Shown: piece after piece, positions 30,602 through 45,403 of the stretch
How positions within the stretch are numbered: the stretch's first letter is position 1
How the letters are laid out: each line of letters starts with the position of its first letter
Source of the DNA: Corynebacterium mustelae
GTDB taxonomy: Bacteria; Actinomycetota; Actinomycetes; Mycobacteriales; Mycobacteriaceae
Direction of reading: 5' to 3'
Assembly: GCF_001020985.1 (NCBI RefSeq)
Contig: NZ_CP011542.1
Location: 3,162,001 to 3,226,000, forward strand
Length of the DNA: 64,000 nt
The notes under the pieces: generated by a model
Databases searched by the model: none
What the model was told of the DNA's origin: nothing
What the model saw: only the letters and a program-made list of their open reading frames with translations
Position numbers and translations under genes: made by a program

Positions 30602-31130
30602 TGTCACGAATGTACGCGTACACTTGGACCTTAAAGCCTTTGACTGACGATAACCATGAGAGGTAATAAACCCACCGACACGATGGTTATTCAACGTCTG
30701 GCAGATGAACTCGACGTCAGAAACGATCACGGTAGTGGTCGATAAACCTGATCATTTCCTAAGGTTTCGGGTCGAGTTCCGATGCGAAAAAGCCGACGTA
30801 GCCTTTGAGCTGCTCATTAATATCCCGTAGTTCCTGGTTTTCACGACGCAACCGTGCATTTTCGGCGATCACATCAGCTTCATCACGGTGAATGATTTCC
30901 GCGCCATCCACGCCTAGCCTTTCTACACCCACTGGGCGTGCCGTATGCCACGACACACCAAGCCTTTGGCGCCACACATTCACACGCCGCCCGCAACGAG
31001 CAGATCTTCAGCCAGAATCCGGTCCTCAACAAGACGGACCACACGATCCTTGAGCATCCTGATCACATTTCCTTGGCATACTCCAGATTTTCCCATCTAC
31101 TCAAACGGAACAAAACCCGGGACACTTCAA
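30602..31130 (-). mobile_element. Truncated IS3-family element (left copy)
   Basis: 529 bp that are about 97% identical, in inverted orientation, to 45794-46323. It contains the IS terminal repeat (outer end at 31130: CCCGGGACACTTCAA) and a degenerate orfA. The orfA C-terminus (30759-30983) has the leucine-rich AENARLRRENQELRDINEQL coiled coil. It also holds the first codons of orfB (TLNNHRVGGFITSHGYRQSKA). It breaks off at 30602 inside orfB. Its terminal repeat points into the phenazine island and ends 15 bp from the last island stop codon. Confidence 0.9.
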
Positions 31131-31144
31131 GTTTTCACCTTTGA

Positions 31145-31513
31145 TTAGTCAATGGGCGCAACTCTAATGCGGTTCCCGTCTGGATCAGCTACGACAAAAG
31201 TTTTTCCGAAAACATCATCATGGGGTTCCTCAAGAACGGATACTCCCTGTTTAACCCATTCATCGTATGTGGCGAGGATTTCTTGCTCGCCACCTCCCAG
31301 ATTTACGCATACTTCAGATGTCCGGGAGCCAGCATTCATAAGTGAATCGCTTTCCCCGGTCCAGAGCGCAAGAGAAACTCCCGATGCAAGATCCATGGTT
31401 ACATAACGAGGAGATTCAAAGCTAGTTTCTAGGTTAAGCAGTTTGGTATAAAAAGCCACCGATGCATCAAGATTTGATGCATATACGATAAACACAATCT
31501 CACGATTACCCAT
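31145..31513 (-). CDS. VOC (glyoxalase/bleomycin-resistance fold) protein, EhpR-like phenazine resistance
   Basis: A 122-aa protein with two VOC repeats (VFIVYASNLDASVAFYTKLLNLETSFES and EVCVNLGGGEQEILATYDEWVKQGVSVLEEP, ending FVVADPDGNRIRV). No metal triad is evident, which fits a binding protein rather than an enzyme. EhpR, in the D-alanylgriseoluteic acid cluster of Pantoea agglomerans, has the same fold and size and sequesters the phenazine. As the last gene of a phenazine operon, self-resistance by drug binding is the best inference. AGGAG precedes the ATG. Confidence 0.82.
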   Translation of the reverse strand: MGNREIVFIVYASNLDASVAFYTKLLNLETSFESPRYVTMDLASGVSLALWTGESDSLMNAGSRTSEVCVNLGGGEQEILATYDEWVKQGVSVLEEPHDDVFGKTFVVADPDGNRIRVAPID

Positions 31514-31546
31514 CTTATAAACACTCCTATTAGGTTTGGTTGGCAG

Positions 31547-32935
31547 TTATTTGGAAAAAGAGTTGAGAAAAGGTCTCTCCATCAGTAAGAATTCACTTAA
31601 ATGCCCATCATGGGGCAAGTCTCGAAAACTCGCTGTGGTCGGCTCATTGATTAACACGCGCCCATTAGAACGGGATCGGAACACCTTAGCTATGATGTCG
31701 ACATCAGATGTAAATAATGATGTAGCGAGAGATCTACTAAGCATTCTTTTTATGTCTATATTTTCGATCGTAGAAATCTCTACCAGCGGAAAAGGCAGCT
31801 CCAAGATCTCTTGTCCCTCCCGGTGTTGTTTACGGCGAAAAACAATAGGCCCTGCAATAATCCTACCATCCAACGCGGTGGACGTGCCATCATAGAGAAT
31901 TTCTACGTTTTGGTCAGAGTAAAATCCCCCTGTAAGGGCGTGAAAACGGTCAACAGAATAACAAGGTCTATCGTCTTTACCAGTTTGAACCCGACACTTA
32001 ATTGCATTGTCGAGAGATTTTATGAGAAGCGACTCCATTTCCCCGGATTTTTCCGTCAAAAGGAGCAACGAGGTATTGAAGCAAGCCACACCGCCAGTTG
32101 CAATAATAGATTTGATAATTTTCTCAATCGTCCTGCCATCCTGACGGCTGGGGTCGATTATCGTTGCAGACCTCCCTGGCCCATAAACCTTTATATCAGT
32201 ACGACCACTGTACCTTTTCTCTAAAGATTTACCGCCGAAAATGATAGACAAATCGCATCTATCAACTAGAAAGTCGCTGGTGAGGTGATCGCAATAAATC
32301 ACCGAAAGAGCTCTTTTGGGCACACCTGCTTTAATAAGACTTTTTGAAAGCCGTAAAGGAGTGAACGGATCCCGGATCGACGGCCTAAGAATAACTTTAT
32401 AGCCATAAAGAAGCGCTTCCACCCAAACGCTATTTGGCCCGGGGCTATTGCCTGGAAGGTTAACAAAAAGAGTATCACCTTTGCGAGCCCGCATAAGGCC
32501 AAAGGAGGGAGGTGATAATTCTCCTAACGAGTTGAGGAAAAAACTATTTCTTCTACGTGCCCCTCTTGCTTTGGCAGGTACTTCTAGAACTGCTTGCGCC
32601 AGCCGCTTTCCGGATTCCTTGACCATTTGCACAGAAAGGCCAGTGGCTTCTGCAACCGATTTACTATACCGTTCGAAATCCTGCCCCCAAAAAGTGGCCG
32701 TTGTAAATAGGTTTGCAGCCTCAGCAAAGACACTTTGATCTATATTCAACAATTCGCCGTCTATGTTCTCAATATTAAACAGATCTGATCGATAGTTGAC
32801 TTCAGCTGCGGAAACCAACTCCACGCGAGTGGATGGCACTCCCGTGATTTCACTGGTGAATCGGCTAGGTAAACTTTCAAACTCACCATGTATTAATGGA
32901 GGAATATGATTTAATGATGGGTTAGTAAACTCCAT
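31547..32935 (-). CDS. LuxC-like acyl reductase (EhpG-like), phenazine carboxylate reduction
   Basis: A 462-aa protein of the acyl-CoA/acyl-protein reductase (LuxC) branch of the aldehyde dehydrogenase superfamily. A nucleotide-binding region is suggested by RKGDTLFVNLPGNSPGPNSVWVEALLYGYKVILRP. The candidate catalytic Cys lies in ATGGVACFNTSLLLL. The start has AAGGAG upstream and lies within the last codons of the upstream EhpF-like gene. EhpF and EhpG were proposed to convert phenazine-1,6-dicarboxylate to 6-formylphenazine-1-carboxylate. I infer the same partnership here. Confidence 0.82.
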   Translation of the reverse strand: MEFTNPSLNHIPPLIHGEFESLPSRFTSEITGVPSTRVELVSAAEVNYRSDLFNIENIDGELLNIDQSVFAEAANLFTTATFWGQDFERYSKSVAEATGLSVQMVKESGKRLAQAVLEVPAKARGARRRNSFFLNSLGELSPPSFGLMRARKGDTLFVNLPGNSPGPNSVWVEALLYGYKVILRPSIRDPFTPLRLSKSLIKAGVPKRALSVIYCDHLTSDFLVDRCDLSIIFGGKSLEKRYSGRTDIKVYGPGRSATIIDPSRQDGRTIEKIIKSIIATGGVACFNTSLLLLTEKSGEMESLLIKSLDNAIKCRVQTGKDDRPCYSVDRFHALTGGFYSDQNVEILYDGTSTALDGRIIAGPIVFRRKQHREGQEILELPFPLVEISTIENIDIKRMLSRSLATSLFTSDVDIIAKVFRSRSNGRVLINEPTTASFRDLPHDGHLSEFLLMERPFLNSFSK

Positions 32936-33956
32936 TTATAAAATTCTCCTTAGCCACGATTTGTTGGTTACTGAGACTAACCAGCCCGTCAGCAGCTATA
33001 ATTCCAAAGTCTCGATCAGGCATTGGAGGATATAGATGGGTCTTAGAAGCATGGGCGTATGCTAATCTTCCTTCGCCTGTTTCCCAAAAAGCATCCTCGT
33101 CTTCGCCACATATGAAAAGCTTTGTGAATGGTGCGTGGAAACTAAACCATTGTTCCGTTTTTTTGCTGCTCAAGTCCACCGGAACTTCTACTCCAAATCC
33201 TAGCGTCATCGTATTTCCCAAGACCCCAAAGAAAGGCAGCCTTGGAAAAATCACATCCCGCATGAACATTTCCGACTCGTTATCAAAGGGCATTCCGCCC
33301 CAACGAATCGAGATATGATTCTCATTAATCACGTCAACGAGCTGATTATCTCTGACTAGGTTTTGCAGAATTGGTGGAGTCGTAATAATGCATCCCACGT
33401 CCTGAGTGAGCAACACGTTCTTCATCTGGTCTATCAAATGTTGCGAATAACCATCCACATTACCGCCATAGCTAGCGGCATTTTTAGCCCATCGTGGATC
33501 AACATCAATGCGAAATGCCTGAGCGCCTTCTTTACGGGCACCTCGAATAGATAATTCTCCTACAACGTGCGGCCCAGTAGGCACCGAAACAAGCCAGTTT
33601 CTACCTGGGTGATGTCCCCACTCCAACATTCTGCTAGCTGACCAATCGATCAACTCATTAGCCCATTCTTCGCCGAGAATTACGCGTTTAGGTACGCCAG
33701 TAGTTCCACCGGACTCAAAAAAACCAGCGATTTTGGTTTTTGCGATCCCTGAGGGAATGAAATCTTCAATTGGGCGTGTTCTAAAATCTTTCTCTAGCTC
33801 AGAAAAACCCTTGGGGGGTACCCCATCCAAGAACCACTTTACTATGAGTTCTCTGCTCCACCCGCTTAGCTTTCTCGAAATCCAATACTTGGAGCCCGTC
33901 GAGTCCGATGTATGCCAGTCAACCATTTTATGGACGTGGTCGGCATAGGTTTTCAT
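32922..33956 (-). CDS. EhpF-like atypical ANL adenylating enzyme (LuxE-related)
   Basis: A 344-aa acyl-adenylate-forming protein. The ATP-binding loop is at about residues 82-90 (ESGGTTGVPK) and an ANL core with WGGMPFDNESEM and YPPMPDRDFG follows. Like EhpF (41 kDa) it lacks the roughly 110-aa C-terminal thiolation domain of ordinary ANL enzymes, so the activated acyl group would pass to a partner reductase. It overlaps KAS III (ATGA) and LuxC, consistent with a stoichiometric pair. The likely substrate is phenazine-1,6-dicarboxylate; this is inferred. Confidence 0.83.
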   Translation of the reverse strand: MKTYADHVHKMVDWHTSDSTGSKYWISRKLSGWSRELIVKWFLDGVPPKGFSELEKDFRTRPIEDFIPSGIAKTKIAGFFESGGTTGVPKRVILGEEWANELIDWSASRMLEWGHHPGRNWLVSVPTGPHVVGELSIRGARKEGAQAFRIDVDPRWAKNAASYGGNVDGYSQHLIDQMKNVLLTQDVGCIITTPPILQNLVRDNQLVDVINENHISIRWGGMPFDNESEMFMRDVIFPRLPFFGVLGNTMTLGFGVEVPVDLSSKKTEQWFSFHAPFTKLFICGEDEDAFWETGEGRLAYAHASKTHLYPPMPDRDFGIIAADGLVSLSNQQIVAKENFINGVY

Positions 33957-34981
33957 GAAAGATCATCTCCAACAATACCTGTAAGTGCAGCCCACTTCAT
34001 TCCAGTGGAAATCGTAGAAAGAATTATCCGTTCTCCTCGATGAAGTCTCCCTGACTCAAAATAATCGATGAATGACAGGATGGGGTCCGCACAACCACAG
34101 TGTCCGTGTTTCGAAACGAGATCAGCGTTGCTGCGTTTTATCCGAGACTGTCTTGCAATCTCTGCAATGGACCGAACTCCCTCTAGGGTATGGAAAAGGC
34201 AACCTGCAGATTCATCCCATTGGGCATTTCTTTTAACTTGGGCGATCACATCTGCCATCGTGCTGCTCCGAATCTCAATAAAATGATACAGCTCTTCTGG
34301 CGTCATTCGATAAATATCTTGGATCCTTTCTCTTCCTGGTTTGTAATACTCTGGGGAAGAAGTCGGAACAATCATTGGTTGAGCAGAGCCACCAAACTCA
34401 ATTCGCATCATGTCAACAAAATACGGAATAGATACTTCTGCGAATGAACCCAAGCGCAATAAGTATTCATCATGCTCTCCCGAGACCGTGACGACAGTCG
34501 CAACAGCAGCATCGCTTAAGATCCCATTCAACAATGAAAATCTGTCATGATGAGCATCTGATACCTTTTGAGCCTGAACGACAAGGCCCACCACACCACC
34601 CCCGTTTTTCAGCATATTTGAAGCTTCGTCAAATGCTGTTACAGCTGAACCGCACCCTTCCGTAATACATCGTGTACGGATTCGATCAACCCCTAATTCC
34701 GCCCCGACTTGACATGCGAAGTCGATCCCTGGGTAGTCAGCTATATCAGTATGAGCGCCGACAATAAAGTCAATATCACCAGCTGTAAGTCCTGCATTCT
34801 GTAGAGCTTTCACTGCAGCATCGCCGCCCATCTCTCGAAGAGATTTATTGGATTTGTAAAAATGGTTATAACCACCAGCTTCAAGAGCTTTTATTTGAGC
34901 GTCAACTGGATAATCTATCCGACTTAGAGACTTTTCCTCCCCTACACTCGACCCCAATCCAACTATGTCTACATTAAGCAT
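33953..34981 (-). CDS. KAS III-like (FabH-fold) acyltransferase
   Basis: A 342-aa thiolase-fold protein. The nucleophilic Cys is C110 (ITEGCGSAV). The His is H264 (LFHTLEGV). Where FabH has the Asn of GNxxxA this protein has KHGHCGCADP, with His at about 294. Loss of the FabH triad Asn is typical of KAS III relatives that transfer an acyl group to an O or N nucleophile rather than condense with malonyl-ACP. The ATG at 34981 is chosen over the GTG at 35011 because GGGGGAA precedes it and its frame begins MLNVDIVGLGSS. It lies between the carrier and EhpF-like genes. Confidence 0.85.
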   Translation of the reverse strand: MLNVDIVGLGSSVGEEKSLSRIDYPVDAQIKALEAGGYNHFYKSNKSLREMGGDAAVKALQNAGLTAGDIDFIVGAHTDIADYPGIDFACQVGAELGVDRIRTRCITEGCGSAVTAFDEASNMLKNGGGVVGLVVQAQKVSDAHHDRFSLLNGILSDAAVATVVTVSGEHDEYLLRLGSFAEVSIPYFVDMMRIEFGGSAQPMIVPTSSPEYYKPGRERIQDIYRMTPEELYHFIEIRSSTMADVIAQVKRNAQWDESAGCLFHTLEGVRSIAEIARQSRIKRSNADLVSKHGHCGCADPILSFIDYFESGRLHRGERIILSTISTGMKWAALTGIVGDDLS

Positions 34982-35180
34982 CACGCTTCCCCCATTCTCC
35001 AATAGGCTCACTTAATATTTCATTTATTGATACTTGAATACCTTTTTGAGCCAATTGTTCCTCCAGAGCTAGCGCTGTTATTGAATTTCCACCGAGATCG
35101 ATGAAGTTGTCACCAGGCTGCACTTCGTCGTCAAAGAGATCGGAAAGAAAATGCAAAATTATGCTTTGCTGATAAGTCAT
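34974..35180 (-). CDS. Peptidyl/acyl carrier protein
   Basis: A 68-aa carrier protein. The phosphopantetheine attachment site is the Ser in FIDLGGNSITALAL. LGGNS rather than the fatty-acid DSLD form is typical of NRPS-type carriers. It overlaps the ligase stop as ATGA and the KAS III start by 8 bp. It would carry the residue activated by the upstream adenylation protein. The host phosphopantetheinyl transferase is presumably encoded elsewhere. Confidence 0.9.
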   Translation of the reverse strand: MTYQQSIILHFLSDLFDDEVQPGDNFIDLGGNSITALALEEQLAQKGIQVSINEILSEPIGEWGKRDA

Positions 35181-36614
35181 TTCTGGTTCTCCTTATTTGT
35201 CAGTTCAGAAATCTTGTTGTGATCAATTTTTCCGCGATCTGTGATAGGCCATTCGTTCGGCGAAAGAAAGATATAGCGGGTTGGACGAGGGAGAACACCC
35301 GAATTGCTTACTACTTGGCGAAGAGTCCGTTTATCAATCGAACTAGTACCATCGGTCTTGATTGCCGCAAATACCTGGTCAAAGGGGGGACAAGAAACAA
35401 CCCACAGATATGCATCCTCAACGTCCTTCTGAGACAGAAGTATATCGACCGTTCGAGAAGGATCGATTCTCTCACCATTGATCTTTAAAAAGCCTGATGA
35501 CCGGCCTTTGAAGATTAGGTCACCGGTTTCTTTTTTTTTCAACGATATCTCCCGTTGCATATTCATCAGTCTTCACTATGCCATCACCGAGGTAGCCTTC
35601 GAACACTTGAGATCCAGAGAGAAACAATTCCCCGCTAGAAATATTAACTCGTAAGCACATATCCCCCATTGGATCCCCAATAGGCACAGACGATAGCGCC
35701 ATATCCTGGCTAGTTAAAAGGTGCACGCTACAAAAGATCGTAGCTTCTGAAGGTCCATAAGCGTTATATATCTGGACTTCATCAGGTGTGACATTGCTCG
35801 GAAGATGCCGCAAAGCATCCCATCCAAGACGCTCTCCACAGAATAAAATCGACCTGGCGTCTTCAAAAAATTGCTGGGAAGTTGCAGCATCTAGCTGGCC
35901 TATTTTTTTAAGTTCAGACGGTGTCAGGGTTATATTTTGTGGGGAAAATTCAGCAATTTTTCTGTATTCTACCACAGACCATTCAGCTATCGGTGTCGGG
36001 CTAATTATAAATTTCCCTTTAAAGAGGACACAACCAAATATTTCCCAAAGGGCCAGATCAAAAGATGGACGATGTTCCCAAAGCCAAGTCTCTCCAGACA
36101 CCAACGTAAGCTTTTCATTTGCGGCAAATAGCATACTGCTCAGGTTAGATCTAGATATCGGAATGATCTTCGGAACACCTGTTGAGCCGGAAGTCTTAAC
36201 AACGTAAACCCATTCCCGGTTCCCGAAATCCTTACACTGATTCTTCTTTGTGATATACGAGAGGTTGCCAGAATTAGATCCCAGCTCCACAACCAATACA
36301 TTTCCATATTCTGATAGCTGCGCAGAAACTGAGTCTGCTTGCTTTATATCATTCGACTCAATACAGAAAGGAACCCTTTTTTTAATCGCCGCTAAAATCC
36401 ACGCAAGTAAATTCGCGGAGTTAACTCCTCTTATAACTATAAACGCTGACGGCGACAAATTATATTTACCCATATGTGCCGTTGCCTCACTGATTTTTGC
36501 AGACAAATCACGTATCGTCGTCTGGGAACTTTGAGATTCTGCAATGATTGAATCTAACTCTTGGTTCAAATAATTATCTACCAACAATTCAAGATAATCG
36601 CGCTCTAATCTCAT
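35177..36614 (-). pseudogene. Stand-alone adenylation (amino-acid-type) ligase, split by a frameshift in an A9 run
   Basis: Two frames make one NRPS-style adenylation protein. The large part (36614 down to about 35530) has VKTSGSTGVPKIIP (core A3), RPSFDLALWEIFG and YNAYGPSEATIF (A5). The Asp of SFDLALWE corresponds to the residue that binds the substrate alpha-amino group in GrsA-type A domains. The C-terminal part (about 35530 to 35177) has GRSSGFLKINGERI (A8) and ITDRGKIDHNKI (A10 Lys). Nine Ts at 35531-35539 cause the shift; eight would restore VEKKETGDLIFKGRSS. The span is 479 codons plus one base. The start at 36614 overlaps phzG as ATGA; the codon at 36638 is rejected. Slippage, phase variation, a real lesion or a sequencing error are all possible. 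Confidence 0.88.
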
Positions 36615-37276
36615 GGCTGAAGCACCTTTCTTGTCCATTCCGAGGCAGAATCATTGGACTTTAAATAAAGGTATCGATGATGCACTCGGTCAAAATCGCC
36701 TTCCCAAAACTCTATTTCTGTAGGCTCAAACATCAACACCACGAACGATTCAGGACATGGTAGTTTTTGAACATTCTCCATTGCGTAATACTCCGCAGCT
36801 CTACTGCGCAAATATTCAATTTTTTCGGTTGATGCTTCTTTACTTTGTTCTGATAGCGCTGATACGATGTCCATGTTCGCAGGCCGTTCCATCCACCATT
36901 CTTGGGCTTTCAAGGCAGAAGCTTCCCTAAGCATGCCACGAATATTGAGCTGTCTGCGTAATTTGGGCCAATAGACATGCCAAGACGCACTTTCAAGAAC
37001 GTTTTTCCCACTCCATTTCCTACTGCCTCTGTGAGTAGCCAAACTCATAGTATTGCCCGAAAAACGAACATTCATTGTGCGAGATGAGATTAAATCGTTG
37101 TCGTCAATCGTGGAGAGGGTTCCTACACAAAACTTGTATTCTTTGCCAGAATTATCTCCCAACCATCCGTGGATAATAGTCCAGGGATCATCTAAGCGTT
37201 TTTTTAAATCCATAATTAATGGGACATCTGCAGAAAAATCCACTGCTTCACCATTTCCACTGGTGGAACTATTCAT
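36611..37276 (-). CDS. phzG: Phenazine biosynthesis FMN-dependent oxidase PhzG
   Basis: A 221-aa protein of the pyridoxine-5-phosphate oxidase fold, the PhzG branch. The order is DDPWTIIHGWLGDNS, SSRTMNVRFSGNTMSLATHRGSRKWSG (FMN-binding strand region), a long helical insert, then ESFVVLMFEPTEIEFWEG and a C-terminal Arg. PhzG oxidises the reactive hexahydrophenazine formed after the PhzF/PhzB steps, giving phenazine-1-carboxylate or phenazine-1,6-dicarboxylate. The start ATG overlaps the phzF stop (ATGA) and has AAGGAG upstream. Confidence 0.92.
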   Translation of the reverse strand: MNSSTSGNGEAVDFSADVPLIMDLKKRLDDPWTIIHGWLGDNSGKEYKFCVGTLSTIDDNDLISSRTMNVRFSGNTMSLATHRGSRKWSGKNVLESASWHVYWPKLRRQLNIRGMLREASALKAQEWWMERPANMDIVSALSEQSKEASTEKIEYLRSRAAEYYAMENVQKLPCPESFVVLMFEPTEIEFWEGDFDRVHHRYLYLKSNDSASEWTRKVLQP

Positions 37277-38109
37277 AGTACAAATTCTCCTTCTCCGATT
37301 AGAGTTGTTTGTCCAGAAAGCGTATAGAATGCGTTTTCAACCGAATAGTCGCCACACATTAGGACTCCAGATGCTCTTCCGACCCCCTGCGTGACCTCAA
37401 TATGCGTCAAAGAAGGCGCTGATTTTCTTATTTCTTTCAGAATAGGAATTACCGCCGTCCCCGTAGCGCGATCTTCATAAACTCCGTAAGAGGGACTGAA
37501 CATCCTATTTTCAATGTATTCTCCCTCAACGAAATAGGCATTTAAGGCTATATCCTTGAATCTTTTCAAACTCTCCCAGTTGGGATCAAAACTTCGCAAT
37601 TCATCAAGGGTGGGGACTTTAACTAAAACATGACGAGGACCACAATCATAGATAGGAAGATCTTGTTCCTGCATTGAAAGCATTTGGCATAGTTTGGCAC
37701 TGTCTTCATATACACTCCGCAGAGGGTCTGGAATTCTAAGATACGATGTCGCTCCATGGTGAGTTTCAAGTAATTGAAACTCAACCTGCATATATCCTGT
37801 ATCAATGATTCCCTTTTTGATCCCCCACATTTCTCGAAAAGACCTAATAGCACCAATAAGAGGGTGACCCGCAAACTTCATAGAGTCATTAGGGTTGAAA
37901 ATTCTTAATTCTATTATTGGGTTTGGTGTCCTTTCTGACCAAGAGATAGCATTCACGAATACGCACTCGGAAAGATTTACAAAAGAAGTTATTTGCTGTC
38001 TAACTTCTACACTCAAATTGCCGTAATCGTATACGACGTAAACTGGGTTACCAAACCCGTAAGATGTTGAAAAAGCACCGATCAGGTGATTTGCAATTCT
38101 AGCCGTCAT
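37273..38109 (-). CDS. phzF: trans-2,3-dihydro-3-hydroxyanthranilate isomerase PhzF
   Basis: A 278-aa protein of the diaminopimelate-epimerase-like fold, the same length as Pseudomonas PhzF. The catalytic Glu is E48 in FVNLSECVFV (equivalent to E45 of PhzF). The second-half signature is MKFAGHPLIG with H82, and RATGTAVIPILKEI provides the second lobe. It isomerises DHHA to the aminoketone that dimerises to the phenazine scaffold. It is coupled by ATGA to the genes on both sides. Confidence 0.95.
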   Translation of the reverse strand: MTARIANHLIGAFSTSYGFGNPVYVVYDYGNLSVEVRQQITSFVNLSECVFVNAISWSERTPNPIIELRIFNPNDSMKFAGHPLIGAIRSFREMWGIKKGIIDTGYMQVEFQLLETHHGATSYLRIPDPLRSVYEDSAKLCQMLSMQEQDLPIYDCGPRHVLVKVPTLDELRSFDPNWESLKRFKDIALNAYFVEGEYIENRMFSPSYGVYEDRATGTAVIPILKEIRKSAPSLTHIEVTQGVGRASGVLMCGDYSVENAFYTLSGQTTLIGEGEFVL

Positions 38110-38405
38110 AGGGATTCACCCCCTACCAAATGTTCAATAACAATAAACTCTTGATCCAAGATAGGACTCCGGCCAGTTACGTGCTCACCTATATTGATTT
38201 GTTTTGTACAATCTATTGGCTTGTGGTTTGTGGAACACATGATAGCACCCCAATATTTCCTATCAAACGAACCAATCCAGATCTTTTCCAACAAATTAGG
38301 AATACTTTTCCATTCTGCGAACCGTCGATGGGTTTCCTCCTCCAGAAGAACGAACTCATCTTCAGAGACGGACCACACTGTTACTCGTGCACGCATTGGC
38401 TTCAT
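38106..38405 (-). CDS. Small YdhR-like ferredoxin-fold protein between phzE and phzF
   Basis: A 99-aa protein with the strand-helix-strand plan of dimeric alpha/beta-barrel monooxygenase-like proteins (MRARVTVWSV, FAEWKSIPNLLEKIWIGSF, RKYWGAIMCS, FIVIEHL). The IPNLxxKIW segment resembles the YdhR family's PGLxxKxW. No metal or cofactor site is visible. It overlaps phzE and phzF as ATGA, so it is expressed strictly with the core enzymes. A monooxygenase, a chaperone for the aminoketone, or a cyclisation aid are all conceivable; none is shown. Confidence 0.6.
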   Translation of the reverse strand: MKPMRARVTVWSVSEDEFVLLEEETHRRFAEWKSIPNLLEKIWIGSFDRKYWGAIMCSTNHKPIDCTKQINIGEHVTGRSPILDQEFIVIEHLVGGESL

Positions 38406-40297
38406 TTGGTTTGCCTCTTCTCATTAATGAGACTGGATACCTCTCGGCGCAAGAAATTTGCGCCATCTTCACTTAGCACAGATTCGGGGTGCCATTGAAA
38501 GGATCTAAAACCTTGAGTTTTTCGATAATTTAAAGTCCTCATTGTTTTATAATCAATTACTTCAAAGCTATTATAGGCAGCAAATTTCTGTGTTTTGCCT
38601 CCTCCAACGTCGAATTCAGACCTACGACCCTGTGCAGATCTTCCAGGAACACGAGCGATTTGATATCCGTCAGCTTTAGCTAATATTTGGTGGCTTAAGC
38701 AAACAGCACATATCGCCACATTCTTTTCTTTAGCAAGTTGTGCCCAATTCAAAATGGCTTTAGCACGGCGATCTTCAACTCGTGGATCGCCCGGGCCGGG
38801 ACCCAAAACTACGCAGTTAAAATCTTTCAGATCAACCATTGCACAGTCCCACTTGATAACTGTTACCTCGTAGCCTTCCCCTTGTAATATATGCGCAATC
38901 ATCCAAATGAAATTGTCCCCGCACTCAATAAGCAGCACTTTTTCGTTCGCCTCACTTGCCGAGTATTTGTTGCGGTTCATCCCCCTCCATACGGCTGGAA
39001 TTTGTTGTGCCCGGCGATCGATAATCTGACGGATTTTATTTGACTCAACTAGCCAATCTATCCTGTCAAAACTTTTCTTCTGAGCGCATGGGCTATCCGG
39101 AATCCCCAATGTAAGCCCCATCATTTTTGCCACTGCATATGCTTTGACGTCTACCTCTTCAACTTCTAGTGCCGGTTCTGAGTCCCGTACAATTGTGGCG
39201 CCTGCACTGATCTTTCCTACGGAGTCACCAACACCAAGCTCCATACTCCGGATCACTAATGCGCTTTCCACCTCATGTGCCCCTCCAGGTGAGCGTTGTA
39301 TCACGCCGCAAGCTCCCGCATAGAATCCTCGACTGCTTCGTTCTATAGATGCAATATGTTTTTCCGCAGATCTTGCTGGACTCCCAACAACAGTTGGGGC
39401 GCCCAAAGCTTCTAAAAGAGCTTCTCCCAGGCTGGATGTGAGTTTCCCATTAATAGAATAGCCAGTATGCAGGATATTTCCGGACTGAATGATTTGAGGA
39501 CCATCTACCGATATCCAATCCTTACATAGTTTGGCCATTATTTTTAGCTCTTCATCTAGAACCATGTTTAATTCATAGATCTCTTTTTCGTCCAATAAAA
39601 ATTGTTCCACAGTTCGACTATCAGCTTCTCCTTTATATGTTCCTGATATCGGTGTCATTTTCGCTTCTCCGTTACACAAGGTGATGAGAGATTCTGGGCT
39701 TGCACCTACAACAAAGTTCATTCCGTCAAACCAGACATAATTCCAGTAGCCCACAGATTTTGACGAAAGAACGCCCAAAAAACACGCCCACGCTGCTTGG
39801 TCAGCAAGGATGTTCTTAGGAAACGCAACATGATAGTCTCTCCGAAAGACAAAGTTGCAGCCTTCGCCAGTTTCGATCAGGACCTCCTGCGCATAGTTAA
39901 ACATTTCCTTTTGTTCTTCATCTGAGTTGTTGGGCAAAATTGTGACTTCTGCATTAGCATTTTTCGCAAAAAGCAAAGCTTGTTCACGGTCAGTTTCGTC
40001 AATCGAAAGTACCTGATGTTGGGTTACATTAAACATCATTGGTTTCAGGTCATCCTGTACAACAATACTGTCACGCTCCGCAATCGCTGAATAAGGGAAC
40101 ATGAAGCACTGGAGGTCAGATTCTTGGCAACACTGATTTATCTCCAGAATCGAATCAAGACAAATCACCTTCTCACCCTCGTAAATATAGACGCGGCTTG
40201 GGTCCTCACGTGCAATCTTTAAAAAGAACGGTTTACCACTGTCGGTGCATTTCTTCCAGGCTCGGTTCAAAATGGTCAAGCCGGGTGAATAGACCAT
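38402..40297 (-). CDS. phzE: 2-amino-2-desoxyisochorismate synthase PhzE
   Basis: A 631-aa fusion of a chorismate-utilising domain and a class I glutamine amidotransferase, as in PhzE. The chorismate half (about 1-410) includes MTPISGTYKGEAD and PTVVGSPARSAEKHI, GFYAGACGVIQRS and ISAGATIVRDSEPALE. The amidotransferase half (about 445-625) has VVLGPGPGDPR, the Cys nucleophile in CAVCLSHQILA, and the His-Glu pair in FQWHPESVLSEDG. The nucleophile elbow differs slightly from the usual GVCLGHQ. It makes ADIC from chorismate and glutamine-derived ammonia. TAATG couples it to phzD. Confidence 0.96.
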   Translation of the reverse strand: MVYSPGLTILNRAWKKCTDSGKPFFLKIAREDPSRVYIYEGEKVICLDSILEINQCCQESDLQCFMFPYSAIAERDSIVVQDDLKPMMFNVTQHQVLSIDETDREQALLFAKNANAEVTILPNNSDEEQKEMFNYAQEVLIETGEGCNFVFRRDYHVAFPKNILADQAAWACFLGVLSSKSVGYWNYVWFDGMNFVVGASPESLITLCNGEAKMTPISGTYKGEADSRTVEQFLLDEKEIYELNMVLDEELKIMAKLCKDWISVDGPQIIQSGNILHTGYSINGKLTSSLGEALLEALGAPTVVGSPARSAEKHIASIERSSRGFYAGACGVIQRSPGGAHEVESALVIRSMELGVGDSVGKISAGATIVRDSEPALEVEEVDVKAYAVAKMMGLTLGIPDSPCAQKKSFDRIDWLVESNKIRQIIDRRAQQIPAVWRGMNRNKYSASEANEKVLLIECGDNFIWMIAHILQGEGYEVTVIKWDCAMVDLKDFNCVVLGPGPGDPRVEDRRAKAILNWAQLAKEKNVAICAVCLSHQILAKADGYQIARVPGRSAQGRRSEFDVGGGKTQKFAAYNSFEVIDYKTMRTLNYRKTQGFRSFQWHPESVLSEDGANFLRREVSSLINEKRQTK

Positions 40298-40920
40298 TAT
40301 CCATCGTCTCCAAACTCGCTTGAATAGAGTAAATCAGAAGAATAAGCAGATAGAAGATTGACCGTCAGCTCATGGTCTACGGATGTAAAATCTGCAATCG
40401 CATCAGGAATAAGAAATGATTCTAGATCTCTGTTAACACAGTCGTAAGCTGTCGCAATAATTCCGACAGATCCATAAATACCACACAAAACAAGTTGATT
40501 GCGTCGGGTCGCGCTTAAAATGCTCGCAAGATTCGTGGACGCAAACGCTGAGTATCGTTGTTTAGTCACAGTGTAGTCAGTAGAAGACCTACTAAGGCGT
40601 GGATCCAATTCAATTTCGGTTCCCGATGAAGCCATTCCTTTCCCCCAAAGGTCTCTTATTATTCCGCGTTCTGCTCTATCGCCATAACCCGCCTGACCAC
40701 TGAAAATAATCGGCATCTCATAATTTCTAGCTGCCTTAATTATCCGGTTTGTGGCATCCAAGAGTTCTTGTTGCAAAAGAGGTGAAAGAAAATTTAAAAA
40801 ATAATTTTGATAATCATGTACAAGGAGCGCTGCCTGGGAAGGTTTTAGTTCCCAGCGCCTCTGACTATCAACTATCGGGATATCAGCGATCGAATAGCTA
40901 ATCTTAGGGATATCGGTCAT
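40297..40920 (-). CDS. phzD: Isochorismatase PhzD
   Basis: A 207-aa protein, identical in length to Pseudomonas PhzD, starting MTDIPKISYS. It hydrolyses ADIC to pyruvate and trans-2,3-dihydro-3-hydroxyanthranilate. The catalytic Asp is in ALLVHDYQNYFLNF and the Lys in TVTKQRYSAF. Where cysteine hydrolases of this fold have their nucleophile, this protein has Gly (GIYGSVGIIATAYD), as expected for an isochorismatase. The ATG at 40920 is preferred to the upstream TTG at 40953, which extends into phzB. Confidence 0.95.
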   Translation of the reverse strand: MTDIPKISYSIADIPIVDSQRRWELKPSQAALLVHDYQNYFLNFLSPLLQQELLDATNRIIKAARNYEMPIIFSGQAGYGDRAERGIIRDLWGKGMASSGTEIELDPRLSRSSTDYTVTKQRYSAFASTNLASILSATRRNQLVLCGIYGSVGIIATAYDCVNRDLESFLIPDAIADFTSVDHELTVNLLSAYSSDLLYSSEFGDDG

Positions 40921-40921
40921 T

Positions 40922-41365
40922 TTATTTATCTTTCGGAATATCTCCACGATCAATTCGAGGAACGTTCATTCCCAATGCTTGGAGCTGTTTTACAGGATTC
41001 ATAAACTCACGTTGCTCTACGATTAATCCATTCTCGAATTTGAAAGCATGTAGGAAATGATTCTCGTAGTAACGTGGACCATAGGCTGGGTAGTTGATAG
41101 TCCCTTTTCCGTCGCATTCTGCCCAGATTTCATCGGGGTCGGTTGTCTCAATTATCCGAATATTAAACCACTCCCAGTCAGGAAACGATTTAAGTGACCA
41201 TTCCGCATGTTCTAGAAGTTTATGCCGCCCCGTAGTGACCACTGCATCACTGTCCGTGGTGTAAAGTCCGGCACTTCCGTCTTCTGCAAATAAGTACGGT
41301 CTTTGACGTCGATCTTCGGGGTCGTTCGAAAGATATTTTCTGACTTTCTCAACATTTGTGGTCAT
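40922..41365 (-). CDS. phzB: Phenazine scaffold-forming protein PhzB (PhzA/B family)
   Basis: A 147-aa NTF2-fold protein. Family features include NDPEDRRQRPYLFAEDGSAGLY, the acidic WFNIRIIETTDPDEIWAECDG and YYENHFLHAFKFENGLIVEQREFMNPVKQLQALG. PhzB catalyses or assists condensation of two aminoketone molecules. Only one copy is present, as usual outside Pseudomonas. I chose the ATG at 41365, preceded by AAGGAGG; the longer frame to 41512 overlaps the upstream gene and has no support. Confidence 0.95.
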   Translation of the reverse strand: MTTNVEKVRKYLSNDPEDRRQRPYLFAEDGSAGLYTTDSDAVVTTGRHKLLEHAEWSLKSFPDWEWFNIRIIETTDPDEIWAECDGKGTINYPAYGPRYYENHFLHAFKFENGLIVEQREFMNPVKQLQALGMNVPRIDRGDIPKDK

Positions 41366-41375
41366 TGATGCCTCC

Positions 41376-42512
41376 TTAAAGCATTTTGGTGAGATTAAAG
41401 GGGTCGTCTCCAAACAAAGCAATACCTGCGGCTTCTTCAGGAATAAACTTCGAAAAACCTCCATGGAGTGCCCCAACATGAATGTCTTTCCAGATTTCTG
41501 CGGCTGGATCACCTTCCACCATGACAGAAGATCCCATTATCCATACAAGTTCATCAGCCACTTCACGACACTGATTCATAACCCTTGAAGCCCTAACACG
41601 CAGCAGTGCACGATTCTTGGAACTCCACAGTTCCCTATTACCGTTTGCTACTCCATCAACAAACTTGGCACCGCCCTTCCCGAATTCATATATTTCTTGC
41701 ACTTTCGAGACCAATCCCCCAATAGTTGATCGAATGGTTCCCGAATCTTTTCCGCAAACATAGCTAGATCCCCCTATGGGGTTCTTAGAAACACGATCGA
41801 TTGCGATGTCAAGAAGGTGAAGAGTTGCTCCAACAATTGAACCTGTTAAACAGTTCATGAGAACACCAGTGAAGAGATTCCGATATGAAGTAGCGTGGTT
41901 ATCACATATAGATCCCTCCAAAATAGCAGAATATGGAATTAATGTATCCTTATCGAGCACTAATGATTCAGCTTTTACCGTGTGACTTCCCGTGCCTTTT
42001 AAACCGATGGCCTTCCAGAAATTGACTACCGCAAGTTCGGTAGATGGCATAAGAGCTACATAGACATCTCCTCCTGGCCGATCATCCTTGACTAATCCAA
42101 CAAACCCTCCCGACTGTTCATAGCCTGAGCAATATTTCCACTCTCCATTTATAGTCGCCGTATTTTTTTTATCGTCAAACGTAACTACTCCTGGTCGTCC
42201 GAGCACCATGGAAACAATCGGATGTCCAAATTGTTCTATAGTTTGGGCGGGAAAATTCCCCAACATCGACCATGCAGAGTTTGATACGCCAACAACCCAC
42301 GCCAAGGATGCATCAAAGCGTCCCAAAGAAACACACGTTTCGTAGACTTCAGAAAGTGACTGTGGTCCATCTAAATGCCACTCTGAAAGTTTCGAGAATA
42401 CGGAAAAAATTTCTGGTTTTACACTGGACTGCTTGCCCAAAACTAACTTGGTGCGTTCCCATTCATCCGCAACTAGATGTACTAGGGTATCAACATCTTT
42501 TTGAAATAACAT
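41376..42512 (-). CDS. Acyl-CoA-dehydrogenase-fold flavoprotein (probable phenazine hydroxylase)
   Basis: A 378-aa protein of the acyl-CoA dehydrogenase superfamily, closest in plan to the group D flavin monooxygenases (HpaB/DszC-like, two-component). It has FDASLAWVVGVSNSAW, TINGEWKYCSGYEQSGGFVG and LKGTGSHTVKAESLVLDKDTLI, the last typical of the FMN-binding middle domain. A C-terminal four-helix domain follows. No flavin reductase is encoded here, so reduced flavin must come from the host. Ring hydroxylation of the phenazine, needed before O-methylation, is the inferred role. It overlaps the SDR gene as TAATG. Confidence 0.78.
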   Translation of the reverse strand: MLFQKDVDTLVHLVADEWERTKLVLGKQSSVKPEIFSVFSKLSEWHLDGPQSLSEVYETCVSLGRFDASLAWVVGVSNSAWSMLGNFPAQTIEQFGHPIVSMVLGRPGVVTFDDKKNTATINGEWKYCSGYEQSGGFVGLVKDDRPGGDVYVALMPSTELAVVNFWKAIGLKGTGSHTVKAESLVLDKDTLIPYSAILEGSICDNHATSYRNLFTGVLMNCLTGSIVGATLHLLDIAIDRVSKNPIGGSSYVCGKDSGTIRSTIGGLVSKVQEIYEFGKGGAKFVDGVANGNRELWSSKNRALLRVRASRVMNQCREVADELVWIMGSSVMVEGDPAAEIWKDIHVGALHGGFSKFIPEEAAGIALFGDDPFNLTKML

Positions 42513-43333
42513 TATCTACTTCCAAATCGGAGCAGTTCTTTTAAAGTCTCTTGAGAATCCAACTCGAATAGCTTCGTAACTTGATCGTGCCCAGTCCCCG
42601 CTCGTGGCATCGGTGACTCGTTAATCATCTGATCAAAAAGAGGAACTGAAGATTCCGTATCGTACAATTCAAATCCACAGCGACAGTTTTCTTGTAGCCA
42701 TAAATCGTTATACCTTGACGAAGAAGGGGTTCGTTCTGCATAACTAGTAGCCCATCCCGTACCTATATGGGGCCCCGGATACAGACAACCTACCTGAATG
42801 CCGAACTCTGCAAGTTCAATACGAAGAGTTTCGCTTAAAGCTCTAACCCCGTACTTAGTTATTTGGTAGGTACCTAAGTTGGGCCAACAATGCAGCCCTG
42901 ACATGCTTGAAACGAAAATGATTCGTCTATCCCCAAATGACGGCATAGCGCGAAGCCCTGCTATGGCGACATTCCTGGAACCAACCACATTTACTCGAAA
43001 ACTCGCTTCAAGATCGTCTGGAGAAACATCTTCGATCGTCCCAAAATGAGCAAAGGCAGCGGCACAAACAACATGAGATATATATGGCAACTTATGTTCC
43101 TGCAATGCCGAGTTGAGGGCTTGCTCAAGCAAAGGATAATTTCGGATATCCTGTTTTATTGAGAAAAACTGTCCGGGAAATGCGGATTCAATATCCGAAA
43201 CGGAATCTGGCTGTCTCGTTATTCCAACCACTTTGTCACCTTGCCGAAGAACTGCTAGCGCCCATTCACGGCCAAGACCACTACTTATCCCAGAGAAAAG
43301 CCACACTCTTTCTTGTGAATTGTAATCAACCAT
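42512..43333 (-). CDS. Short-chain dehydrogenase/reductase
   Basis: A 273-aa SDR. The cofactor motif is SGISSGLGREWALAV at about 15-29 (GxxxGxG). The catalytic Ser and Tyr-x-x-x-Lys are in IIFVSSMSGLHCWPNLGTYQITKYGVRA. A ring or side-chain redox step is likely. One attractive role is reduction of the formyl group made by the EhpF/EhpG-like pair to a hydroxymethyl group, but this is inference. It overlaps the MFS stop by 8 bp. Confidence 0.85.
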   Translation of the reverse strand: MVDYNSQERVWLFSGISSGLGREWALAVLRQGDKVVGITRQPDSVSDIESAFPGQFFSIKQDIRNYPLLEQALNSALQEHKLPYISHVVCAAAFAHFGTIEDVSPDDLEASFRVNVVGSRNVAIAGLRAMPSFGDRRIIFVSSMSGLHCWPNLGTYQITKYGVRALSETLRIELAEFGIQVGCLYPGPHIGTGWATSYAERTPSSSRYNDLWLQENCRCGFELYDTESSVPLFDQMINESPMPRAGTGHDQVTKLFELDSQETLKELLRFGSR

Positions 43334-44723
43334 TCTTTACACCTCTCGATATGTAAGCAGCGATTAGGAGAGCAATGCCAACAAAAGTAAAACCAACAAA
43401 AGAAGCAAATCCGACAGATTGGGCATCAGAGGACTCTCGCCCACCTAAAGCGGACGAAACAATAAAAGCTACAGTCACTCCGCCGATAGCACTGAACGCT
43501 TGTCGTACCCAATTGTAAAAAGCTGCAGCTTCACTTATGATTTCATCGCCGACGGCCAGCATAGAACTGTTTGCCAAAGGTCCGAAAGCAATTCCAGTCC
43601 CTAATTCAGCCAGTACCAGGATTATTATTGATGCGATAATCAAGAAAGCTTTTTCATCCGCCCCGATAAACGATAAGCCCCCAAACAGAAAGCAAGAAAT
43701 CGAAAAGATTATTAGACCAGATATAATTAGAAGCCGCGTTCCCCACTTATTTGACCAGACCCCTGCCAGCACTCCAAAAATGGCGTTTACTACTGAAGCA
43801 AAAACCATTAAGCAAATGATGGTTATTTCATCAAACCTCCACACATATGAAAAGGAAAGCGAAAGAGGAAGATAGTAGGCCGTGAGACTTCCTCCCAGCA
43901 ACGCCGAAGCAAAAACTGCCGCTTTGTATGGGTACTGATCTGTCTTGCTAAAATCCACGATAGGAGCGATTAACCCACTACGACGCAGTTTGATAACCAT
44001 TGCCCCAAGGATAAAAGCAATAACTATCATTATGACGCTAAGCCCCGTAAAACCATTACCAGGACTTAACACTTGTATTCCATATACGAAAGCCATCAAA
44101 GCCAGGCCAGCGATTATCGGGAACGACATTTGCCTGAAAGTAAGTAGCCCATCGGAATATGTAGTTTCAAGAGCCACAACTGACAAGATTAACGAGAGTA
44201 GGATTACGGGGATGTTCACCCAGAAAGCAATCTCCCAATATCCAAAAGCGGCTACACTTTTCGCCAGAACAGGGCCAAGCCCTGTTCCAATACTTGCGAC
44301 TGCACCCCAAATACCGAAAGCTAGACCACGATCATCCGGCTCGAACATGTTAGATATGAAAGCCATACTCTGAGGTGTTATTAATCCTGCCCCTACTCCC
44401 ATCACGAAACGCGCGATCAGTATCAAATGATAATTACCCGACAGAGCACCTAGTAGTGAGCCTGCTCCCACCATCAAAAGTCCGACCGAAAATATTTTCT
44501 TTCTGTCCTTTATATCACCTAACCTCCCTCCAAGAAGCAACGTTCCTGCATATGCAATGAGGTAAAGATTGTTAACTGCCGCAACTTCCGAAACCCCCAA
44601 TTCAAGGTCGGAGATCAGCAGTGGGTATAAAAATGGGATTAGTGTGGTGTCTAGCATAATGATAAAAAATGCTAGACAAAGGCTCAAGAAACCAAGCCTG
44701 CGTCGTTGCGATAGTGAGTTCAT
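43326..44723 (-). CDS. MFS multidrug-type exporter (probable phenazine efflux)
   Basis: A 465-aa transporter of the DHA2-like, roughly 14-helix class. The loop 2-3 motif is LLGGRLGDIKDRKK and a motif C-like stretch is GIWGAVASIGTGLGPVLAK. It is the second gene of the phenazine operon, so export of the product and self-protection are the likely roles. Other phenazine clusters, including the P. agglomerans one, also encode an exporter. No other substrate is suggested by context. Confidence 0.88.
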   Translation of the reverse strand: MNSLSQRRRLGFLSLCLAFFIIMLDTTLIPFLYPLLISDLELGVSEVAAVNNLYLIAYAGTLLLGGRLGDIKDRKKIFSVGLLMVGAGSLLGALSGNYHLILIARFVMGVGAGLITPQSMAFISNMFEPDDRGLAFGIWGAVASIGTGLGPVLAKSVAAFGYWEIAFWVNIPVILLSLILSVVALETTYSDGLLTFRQMSFPIIAGLALMAFVYGIQVLSPGNGFTGLSVIMIVIAFILGAMVIKLRRSGLIAPIVDFSKTDQYPYKAAVFASALLGGSLTAYYLPLSLSFSYVWRFDEITIICLMVFASVVNAIFGVLAGVWSNKWGTRLLIISGLIIFSISCFLFGGLSFIGADEKAFLIIASIIILVLAELGTGIAFGPLANSSMLAVGDEIISEAAAFYNWVRQAFSAIGGVTVAFIVSSALGGRESSDAQSVGFASFVGFTFVGIALLIAAYISRGVKNG

Positions 44724-44725
44724 CG

Positions 44726-45403
44726 TTACGCTTTCCTGGCGCTCGCCACCCAGACGGGGAGTAACGATTCCCCAACACTATTTCTGTTTATTGTTAATTT
44801 ATACATCTTTATCAATTCTTCTATAGATGAATAAACACCGCAGTAAAAATCTAGGTCAACGGAAATATCCGAAAAACCTGCTTGCGTAAGATTCTCCACT
44901 AATTGTTCTTTGGACACTGCAAGTTTTTTTGGCATCCCGTTTGGGACATCGGCAAATGTAATAACCAGCAATCTACCACCCTGATGTAAGTAGGTAGAAA
45001 GGATTTCCAGGTAGCACGAGCGCTCTCCAGACGGAATGGTATGATAGACAGCTGAGTCTAAGATAACGTCGAAGTATTCACCCCACGATTCATTAATGTC
45101 AAAAATATTCTTCTGACGATAGTCAACATTTGAACCTTCATGTCGCTTTTTGCACATCTGAATCGCATCATAGGACAAATCAATAGCGGTAACCGCAAAG
45201 CCCTCAACGGAGGCAAACTCCGCATTTTCCCCAGTCCCACATCCAACATCCAGCAACTTCCCCTTAGGGCAACCTACAAGAGCTTTTTGGACAACCTCTT
45301 GATGATGCCCTACATCCCACGGAATCACCTTAATTTCCACCTCGTTCATTAGCGTTTTCCCCTCATAAACTCCAGCAAGGTTCACCTGGTCAAATTCGTT
45401 CAT
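44726..45403 (-). CDS. SAM-dependent methyltransferase, first gene of the phenazine operon
   Basis: A 225-aa class I methyltransferase. The SAM-binding motif is KLLDVGCGTGENAEFA, followed by VTAIDLSYDAIQMCKK (acidic loop), FDVILDSAVYHTI and GGRLLVITFAD. The ATG at 45403 with AAGGA upstream is preferred to the longer frame at 45427. O-methylation of a hydroxyphenazine (as in griseoluteic acid, which carries a methoxy group) fits the cluster, but N-methylation cannot be excluded. The operon promoter must lie upstream, between here and 45793. Confidence 0.85.
   Translation of the reverse strand: MNEFDQVNLAGVYEGKTLMNEVEIKVIPWDVGHHQEVVQKALVGCPKGKLLDVGCGTGENAEFASVEGFAVTAIDLSYDAIQMCKKRHEGSNVDYRQKNIFDINESWGEYFDVILDSAVYHTIPSGERSCYLEILSTYLHQGGRLLVITFADVPNGMPKKLAVSKEQLVENLTQAGFSDISVDLDFYCGVYSSIEELIKMYKLTINRNSVGESLLPVWVASARKA

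What the first reader, a model, noticed from the sequence alone, without database searches (positions are those of the whole stretch)
31145..45403. A complete 16-gene phenazine antibiotic operon in a Corynebacterium
Seen: phzB, phzD, phzE, phzF and phzG with their catalytic residues, all on the minus strand. The operon also has tailoring, export and resistance genes, nearly all coupled by ATGA or TAATG overlaps. Known: PhzE, D, F, B and G suffice to make phenazine-1-carboxylate or phenazine-1,6-dicarboxylate from chorismate. Inference: the extra genes (EhpF/EhpG-like reduction pair, hydroxylase-like flavoprotein, SDR, methyltransferase, adenylation-carrier-acyltransferase set, EhpR-like binder) are those needed for a griseoluteic-acid-type, aminoacylated phenazine, as in the roughly 16-gene D-alanylgriseoluteic acid cluster of Pantoea agglomerans. 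I am not aware of a described corynebacterial producer; a broad-spectrum phenazine made by such a bacterium would matter for niche competition.
Basis: partly seen in the sequence, partly recalled or inferred. Interest (0 to 1): 0.95.

Follow-up and report, generated by a model that had tools for sequence, protein, structure and literature searches.

The report
IS-bracketed phenazine operon, cap gene split
The ferret-derived bacterium Corynebacterium mustelae carries a chromosomal operon with counterparts of 15 of 16 proteins of a Pantoea phenazine-antibiotic cluster and would likely make a similar coloured phenazine, but its predicted amino-acid-activating gene is split at one of only two nine-A tracts in the genome, so the final capping step is predicted to fail or to flicker on and off.

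Summary
The operon is real: 17 ORFs on the minus strand (31145-45403), closely packed, holding phzBDEFG and counterparts of 15 of 16 proteins compared from a Pantoea agglomerans ehp-type locus. The genome is C. mustelae DSM 45274 by its exact size, 3,474,226 bp. (1) It is not complete: the EhpM-type adenylation gene is two ORFs (364 and 129 aa) meeting at a nine-A tract; the pieces tile 7 of 7 near relatives, and A9/T9 occurs at two places in the genome. (2) Inverted copies of one IS3-family element, one truncated, bracket the operon, at a site where 2 of 40 compared genomes have the flanking genes side by side. (3) The sixteenth gene is predicted to be an ABM-fold protein, also found between phzE and phzF in three proteobacterial loci. 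Near relatives of its EhpF, EhpO or EhpM proteins are named from C. ulcerans, Rothia and Microbacterium; of 242 Corynebacterium genomes only this one matched both PhzB and EhpF. No product was tested.

The parts
44726..45403 (-). class I SAM methyltransferase (ehp-type, likely O-methyltransferase)
   Evidence: Pfam methyltransferase families; 42% to the L018 methyltransferase
43326..44723 (-). MFS exporter (EhpJ-type)
   Evidence: PF07690 124.5 bits; 37% to the L018 MFS protein
42512..43333 (-). SDR oxidoreductase
   Evidence: PF00106; 39% to the L018 SDR
41376..42512 (-). flavin-dependent monooxygenase-like protein (acyl-CoA dehydrogenase type), likely ring hydroxylase
   Evidence: weak PF08028 (22.5 bits, cut-off 22.7) and HsaA (48.8 bits, below cut-off); 38% to the L018 protein in the same module
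40922..41365 (-). phzB
   Evidence: PF03284 183.8 bits; 3ff0 PhzB2 E 1.1e-48
40297..40920 (-). phzD (isochorismatase)
   Evidence: PF00857; isochorismate lyases E 1.7e-36 and PhzD 1nf9 E 2e-34
38402..40297 (-). phzE (ADIC synthase with glutaminase domain)
   Evidence: best PDB match 3r74, E 2.6e-57 (that 3r74 is PhzE is recalled); 30% to L018 PhzE
38106..38405 (-). 99-aa protein, predicted ABM/dimeric ferredoxin-like fold, between phzE and phzF
   Evidence: homologues between phzE and phzF in L015, L016, L019; best of five models pLDDT 77, worst 37; Foldseek to NosA, SnoaB and others
37273..38109 (-). phzF
   Evidence: PF02567 96.5 bits; PhzF 1u1v E 9.9e-29
36611..37276 (-). phzG
   Evidence: PF10590; PhzG 1ty9 E 2.6e-14, 4hms E 2.7e-14; below NCBIfam cut-off
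35520..36614 (-). EhpM-type adenylation gene, first piece (364 aa, N-terminal domain)
   Evidence: PF00501; aligns to residues 1-360 of P0102
35177..35566 (-). EhpM-type adenylation gene, second piece (129 aa, C-terminal domain), other frame
   Evidence: aligns to residues 358-476 of P0102, 65.5%
35531..35539 (-). nine-A tract (T9 on + strand) at which the two frames meet
   Evidence: only A/T run of 9 or more in the window; one of two A9/T9 places in 3.47 Mb
34974..35180 (-). carrier protein (EhpN-type), Ser in LGGNSI
   Evidence: 37% to the L018 ACP
33953..34981 (-). KASIII-like acyltransferase (EhpO-type)
   Evidence: PF08541; 40% to the L018 KASIII; tree
32922..33956 (-). EhpF-type truncated adenylate-forming enzyme
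   Evidence: PDB EhpF 3l2k E 5.5e-46, 3hgu E 5.6e-46
31547..32935 (-). EhpG-type aldehyde dehydrogenase/LuxC-like reductase
   Evidence: PF00171, PF05893; 27% to the L018 ALDH, E 4e-39
31145..31513 (-). EhpR-type phenazine-binding resistance protein
   Evidence: PDB EhpR 3sk1 E 7.4e-20
45794..47122 (.). IS3-family element, full length by its ends, transposase ORFs fragmentary
   Evidence: IS3 transposase model 94.6 bits, below its cut-off of 160; 24-nt end repeats, 88%; 94% copy elsewhere in the genome
30602..31130 (.). inverted copy of the same IS, cut off on its outer side
   Evidence: 97.7% over 530 nt

Best explanation
This is an ehp-type phenazine operon, bracketed by two inverted copies (one truncated) of an IS3-family element and likely acquired horizontally, whose enzymes would likely turn chorismate into a griseoluteic-acid-type phenazine, while the frameshifted EhpM-type gene is predicted to block, or make slip-dependent, the last step that caps it with an amino acid. 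Predicted route (inferred from homology): PhzE, PhzD, PhzF, PhzB and PhzG build phenazine-1,6-dicarboxylate; the EhpF- and EhpG-type proteins activate one carboxylate and reduce it towards a hydroxymethyl group; the flavoprotein and methyltransferase add the ring methoxy group, with the SDR as auxiliary reductase; the adenylation protein would charge the carrier protein and the KASIII-like protein would move the aminoacyl group to the hydroxymethyl; EhpR and the MFS protein bind and export the product. Shown here: gene content, order, homology, the split, the IS copies and the atypical base composition. Not shown: expression, product, colour, self-resistance.
For: 15 of 16 compared Pantoea proteins have a counterpart. 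EhpF and EhpR are the top PDB matches of their counterparts. All roles recur in L015 and L016 in another module order. The adenylation gene is split at the A9 tract; the pieces tile 7 of 7 near relatives, with like conservation on both sides (63.6% and 65.5% to P0102). A9/T9 is at two places in 3.47 Mb (the tool's control, the pattern read backwards, is the same pattern and says nothing). Inverted IS3 copies bracket the operon. GC 40-46% and GC3 33-45% in the operon ORFs against 52-58% and 53-62% in six window genes outside it. Flanking genes side by side in G100 and G126. Two PPTase-family matches in the genome. The species is described as making a greenish-beige pigment (PMC4566179, whole text).
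Against: No product, transcript or colour was measured. Identity to the Pantoea proteins is only 27-53%, so tailoring positions and the capping residue may differ. PhzG scores under the NCBIfam cut-offs for both PhzG and PdxH. One Eh1087 letter (ehpA-O, 15 ORFs, PMC3175449) could not be matched to a gene in L018. The split could be a sequencing error; no reads were available. The pigment may be something else. The right IS copy has fragmentary transposase ORFs and the left copy is truncated; target duplications were not tested.
Confidence: 0.72

Rival explanations
1. Decaying operon: the frameshift is a dead end, the island is on its way out and makes nothing useful.
For: One gene is split; the bracketing IS copies are truncated or have fragmentary transposase ORFs.
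Against: The other 15 ORFs are about as long as their homologues; the piece downstream of the break is as conserved as the upstream one; the species is pigmented.
Confidence: 0.2
2. The sequence is wrong at the A9 tract and the EhpM-type gene is intact, so the strain makes the capped phenazine.
For: Homopolymers are error-prone sites (recalled); relatives are single chains, 7 of 7 and 9 of 9.
Against: The genome was sequenced with Illumina MiSeq from a PCR-free library, which rarely miscounts nine-base runs (recalled).
Confidence: 0.17
3. Split but functional: the two pieces are made as separate N- and C-domain proteins that work together, since the break lies between the two structural domains of the ANL fold.
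For: The break lies between the YATGD motif and the GRSSGFLKINGERI hinge region (domain boundary recalled); the second piece has its own ATG inside the first ORF.
Against: I see no clear ribosome-binding site before the second ATG (22 nt printed); 16 of 16 relatives compared are single chains.
Confidence: 0.08
4. It is a phenazine operon, but the end product is not griseoluteic-acid type.
For: Identities to the Pantoea type are low, 27-53%; EhpF/EhpG homologues also occur in phenazine clusters that lack the full ehp tailoring and capping set (L019, L020).
Against: The whole tailoring and capping gene set is present, with an EhpR-type binder.
Confidence: 0.15

Closest known systems
ehp cluster of Pantoea (Enterobacter) agglomerans (D-alanylgriseoluteic acid); the locus compared here is plasmid pASB05p2, NZ_CP046724 (L018)
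   Same: Counterparts of 15 of 16 proteins compared: five core enzymes, EhpF, EhpG, methyltransferase, MFS, SDR, flavoprotein, adenylation protein, carrier, KASIII, EhpR
   Different: Chromosomal and IS-bracketed; modules in another order; EhpR at the 3' end on the same strand; extra 99-aa ORF; no DUF2165; adenylation gene split; 27-53% identity
ehp-type loci of Aeromonas popoffii (L016) and Janthinobacterium sp. ROICE36 (L015)
   Same: All roles, including the small ORF between phzE and phzF
   Different: Order R, MT-MFS-SDR-FMO, A-CP-KAS, phzBDE-orf-FG, EhpFG; adenylation gene one chain; outside the clade that holds C. mustelae in both trees
EhpO, EhpF and EhpM relatives named from Corynebacterium ulcerans (EhpO, EhpM), Corynebacterium sp. 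(EhpF), Microbacterium (EhpO, EhpF), Rothia terrae (EhpM), and unnamed contigs
   Same: Nearest relatives: EhpO 56-70%, EhpF 54-71%, EhpM 43-63%; the EhpO and EhpF rows used form one clade with C. mustelae
   Different: EhpM a single chain in 7 of 7; their gene neighbourhoods could not be read here

Membership tests
phenazine core pathway (phzBDEFG) | all five core genes together | tested here: met
   PhzG partly by context
phenazine core pathway (phzBDEFG) | catalytic motifs kept (PhzF NLSE, FAGHP, ED.ATG; PhzE CLSH and HPES; PhzD VHD, TK; PhzB H, REF) | tested here: met
   residue roles recalled; PhzG residues not checked
ehp-type (griseoluteic acid) gene clusters | EhpF (ANL without C-terminal domain) followed by an EhpG-type reductase | tested here: met
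ehp-type (griseoluteic acid) gene clusters | methyltransferase, MFS, SDR, flavoprotein module and EhpR | tested here: met
ehp-type (griseoluteic acid) gene clusters | EhpM-EhpN-EhpO genes present | tested here: met
   present by homology, EhpM in two pieces
strains able to make D-alanylgriseoluteic acid | intact EhpM | tested here: not met
   so the strain is not filed as a D-alanylgriseoluteic acid maker
strains able to make D-alanylgriseoluteic acid | product found | not testable with these tools
   needs culture and LC-MS
composite transposon | two copies of one IS at the ends | tested here: inconclusive
   inverted copies found, one truncated; target duplications not tested
assembly contaminant | flanks foreign or contig separate | tested here: not met
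   inside the 3.39-Mb chromosome between genes with relatives in other corynebacteria

The most novel reading that the evidence does not exclude
The nine-A tract is a genetic switch: slippage in it, during replication or transcription, turns the amino-acid-activating enzyme on and off, so one population would make both a capped, antibiotic phenazine and an uncapped, milder pigment. I know of no slip-switched tailoring step in phenazine biosynthesis (recalled; not searched).
Probability: 0.13. Interest if true: 0.75.

Novelty: new member of a known kind. Interest (0 to 1): 0.55.

Why it matters
If active, it would make an animal-associated Corynebacterium a phenazine maker and give a candidate cause for the pigment that helps to recognise the species. 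It points to a Gram-positive branch of griseoluteic-acid-type operons, single proteins of which are named from C. ulcerans, Rothia and Microbacterium. The split capping gene at a genome-rare A9 tract gives a direct test of whether the last step of an antibiotic pathway is off, leaky or switched.

Tried and rejected
Rejected: contaminant (flanks). Rejected: G066 and G163 as further phenazine makers; they have PhzB-like domains (51-99 bits), but a coarse ORF comparison of 19 kb around them matched no phzD, phzF or phzG, only a 26% match to phzE, and neither matched the EhpF alignment. Rejected: G233 as an EhpF carrier (18.6 bits). Rejected: the single TGA flagged in four KASIII loci as an in-frame stop; none lies inside the aligned part. 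No Rfam match at gathering threshold in 30-48 kb. Promoter-like matches were fewer than in shuffles (17 against a mean of 28.4), so no promoter is claimed; none of the 17 ORFs is a regulator by these searches. A scan of viral contigs with the EhpF alignment confirmed none of 32 candidate stretches. Plasmids: EhpF gave 28 records, each under 60% identity and none Corynebacterium; the operon DNA gave 7 records, the best place in each covering 1% of the query. Whether the A9 tract exists in the C. ulcerans or Rothia genes could not be tested: only their proteins were at hand. Trees: 23 of 35 EhpO hits plus 4 loci (the Burkholderia outgroup branch is 10 long, the program warned of long branches, so the root is unsafe) and 18 of 65 EhpF hits plus 11 loci (midpoint root, two long rows, the L009 row starts at a mechanical first start codon). 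Alignment A1 held 16 of 35 hits, A2 12 of 65, A3 6 of the 7 near EhpM relatives; one search used all 7 and not the remoter hits P0109-P0125.
Full report
WHAT IS THERE. The window is bases 3162001-3226000 of contig C1 of a 3,474,226-base genome. That size, and a chromosome of 3,391,554 bp, are those printed for Corynebacterium mustelae DSM 45274 in PMC4566179 (whole text read); the window's own proteins in the protein search lie on a contig of that length. [quoted passage not shown] it does not mention phenazines.

Seventeen ORFs run on the minus strand from 45403 to 31145. Junctions: 12 of 16 overlap (one of these is the split gene), 3 have gaps of 1-10 nt, 1 has 33 nt. In order: methyltransferase, MFS exporter, SDR, flavoprotein monooxygenase-like, phzB, phzD, phzE, a 99-aa ORF, phzF, phzG, adenylation piece 1, adenylation piece 2, carrier protein, KASIII-like, EhpF-like, EhpG-like, EhpR-like.

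CORE GENES. Pfam and PDB sequence matches identify the five. PhzG is the least certain by sequence: 101 bits to the NCBIfam PhzG model and 91 to PdxH, both under the cut-offs. Motifs that carry the known catalytic residues of PhzB, D, E and F are in place (the residue roles are recalled, not looked up).

EHP TYPE. EhpF (E 5.5e-46) and EhpR (E 7.4e-20) are the top PDB matches of their counterparts. Against the annotated Pantoea agglomerans locus on NZ_CP046724, 15 of 16 proteins compared have a counterpart (27-53% identity); only DUF2165 has none. PMC3175449 (passages read) states that EhpA-E make phenazine-1,6-dicarboxylate, that EhpF-O without the exporter EhpJ turn it into D-alanylgriseoluteic acid, and that EhpR gives resistance. 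It counts 15 ORFs ehpA-O; the L018 annotation shows 14 plus DUF2165, so one letter stays unassigned here. L018 is not Eh1087 itself.

A pattern-based scan of a collection with one genome for each of 84,980 species gave 9 loci with an EhpO relative, in 8 proteobacterial species (the window's own genome may be left out, and the scan needs short conserved stretches, so it misses some). Eight of the 9 carry ehp-type neighbours; L013 does not. L015 and L016 hold all roles. The modules keep their internal order but are shuffled among C. mustelae, Pantoea and Aeromonas/Janthinobacterium.

THE SMALL ORF. A homologue of the 99-aa ORF lies between phzE and phzF in L015, L016 and an E. coli plasmid, L019. 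A small ORF also follows phzE in L020; it did not match at E 1e-4, and was aligned with the others because of its place. No Pfam family matches the window protein; one of the five aligned proteins matches ydhR at E 0.13. The best of five models (mean pLDDT 77 from three sequences; the worst had 37) resembles antibiotic-biosynthesis monooxygenase / dimeric ferredoxin-like proteins (NosA, SnoaB and others; best E 3.7e-5). Function: inferred accessory only.

THE SPLIT GENE. Adenylation piece 1 ends at a stop at 35520; piece 2 starts inside it at 35566 in another frame; the frames meet at a nine-A tract. Against P0102 (C. ulcerans, 478 aa) piece 1 covers residues 1-360 (63.6%) and piece 2 358-476 (65.5%). 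The same tiling holds for 7 of 7 near relatives, 472-485 aa long. In 9 of 9 proteobacterial loci the gene is one open frame without a run of 8 or more. A9/T9 occurs at two places in the genome; the other lies in frame near the start of a 377-aa ORF. Slippage is therefore the likely origin (inference). Like conservation on both sides of the break suggests that it is recent or tolerated. Whether it is fixed, switched, leaky or a sequencing error cannot be told here.

ACQUISITION (inferred). Inverted copies of one IS3-family element bracket the operon: the shared part is 30602-31130 and 45794-46323, 97.7% alike; the right copy runs on to 47122 with end repeats, and a 94% copy lies elsewhere on the chromosome. 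GC and third-position GC in the operon are below those of six window genes outside it. The genes on either side (28823-30325 and 47604-48521) are 17.3 kb apart here. They are 121 and 88 nt apart in G100 and G126, and about 13-16 kb apart, with other genes between, in G146, G173 and G095. The other compared genomes have them far apart, on different contigs, or have no close counterpart of one (41 genomes in each search, own included). The site thus looks variable in the genus.

SPREAD. PF03284 matched 3 of 242 Corynebacterium genomes, own included; the other two show no phenazine operon in a coarse look. The EhpF alignment gave 1 clear match of 242, this genome, and one of 18.6 bits. These hold one genome per species, so strain-level carriage, as the C. 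ulcerans proteins suggest, is missed. In an even sample of 394 class genomes the EhpO alignment gave 9 at E 1e-30 or better: this one at 529 bits and eight at 128-184 bits. Protein searches show seven nearer relatives for each of EhpO, EhpF and EhpM (56-70%, 54-71%, 43-63%); the names given are C. ulcerans, Corynebacterium, Microbacterium (foliorum) and Rothia terrae. With C. mustelae, six of the seven EhpO relatives form one clade (99/94) and six of the seven EhpF relatives one (100/100), apart from the proteobacterial rows; the seventh of each was not put in, the roots are not safe and both runs warned of long branches.

LITERATURE. Ten searches of the held library were made: (152 papers, 20 listed; 8; 12; 2; 4; 11; 58,463 for either term, 20 listed; 130, 15 listed; 34, 25 listed), 87 (11). 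Judged by listings (titles, starts of abstracts) and the passages below, none describes a phenazine operon or product in a Corynebacterium. One C. diphtheriae paper names a PhzF-family gene among strain-specific genes (PMC6278121, passages). Two surveys of oral and airway bacteria count phenazine clusters without naming Corynebacterium as the carrier in the passages seen (PMC8549736; PMC6469967). PMC9903846 (passages) speaks of a PhzA/B-only cluster in Bifidobacterium. PMC7591250 (passages) surveys 181 producer genomes and has no occurrence of Corynebacterium in its main text; its supplementary list was not read. The EhpF structure paper is not held, and the original ehp paper was not seen.

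VERDICT. A new, deeply branching member of the ehp type in a host genus for which I found no such operon described, with a split capping gene; ordinary in mechanism, unusual in place, and easily tested.

Noticed in passing
L019 (NZ_CP076707.1, 3808-19801): An E. coli O170:H18 IncFIB plasmid carries phzBDEFG with EhpF/EhpG-type genes, an NRPS-like gene and a gene annotated clbA nearby.
   Followed up: partly
L031 1995-2003 (G000:C1:494494-494502): The only other A9 tract in the genome lies near the start of a 377-aa ORF that follows a 391-aa ORF; a possible second slippage site.
   Followed up: partly
47096-47497: The IS3 copy overlaps the end of a 133-aa ORF; a 40-nt stretch from its outer edge recurs at G000:C1:2910887.
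   Followed up: no
L026, L027, L028: The site between the two flanking genes holds other gene blocks of about 13-16 kb in three other corynebacteria, which suggests an insertion hot spot.
   Followed up: partly
L035: A distant actinobacterial locus holds an adenylation gene, a KASIII-like gene and an EhpF-like gene in a row (25-33% identity), perhaps a remote griseolutein-type cluster.
   Followed up: no
L020 (NZ_CP013415.1): A conjugative Burkholderia ubonensis plasmid has phz genes with EhpF/EhpG, a ketosynthase and a KASIII-like gene of only 24% identity.
   Followed up: no
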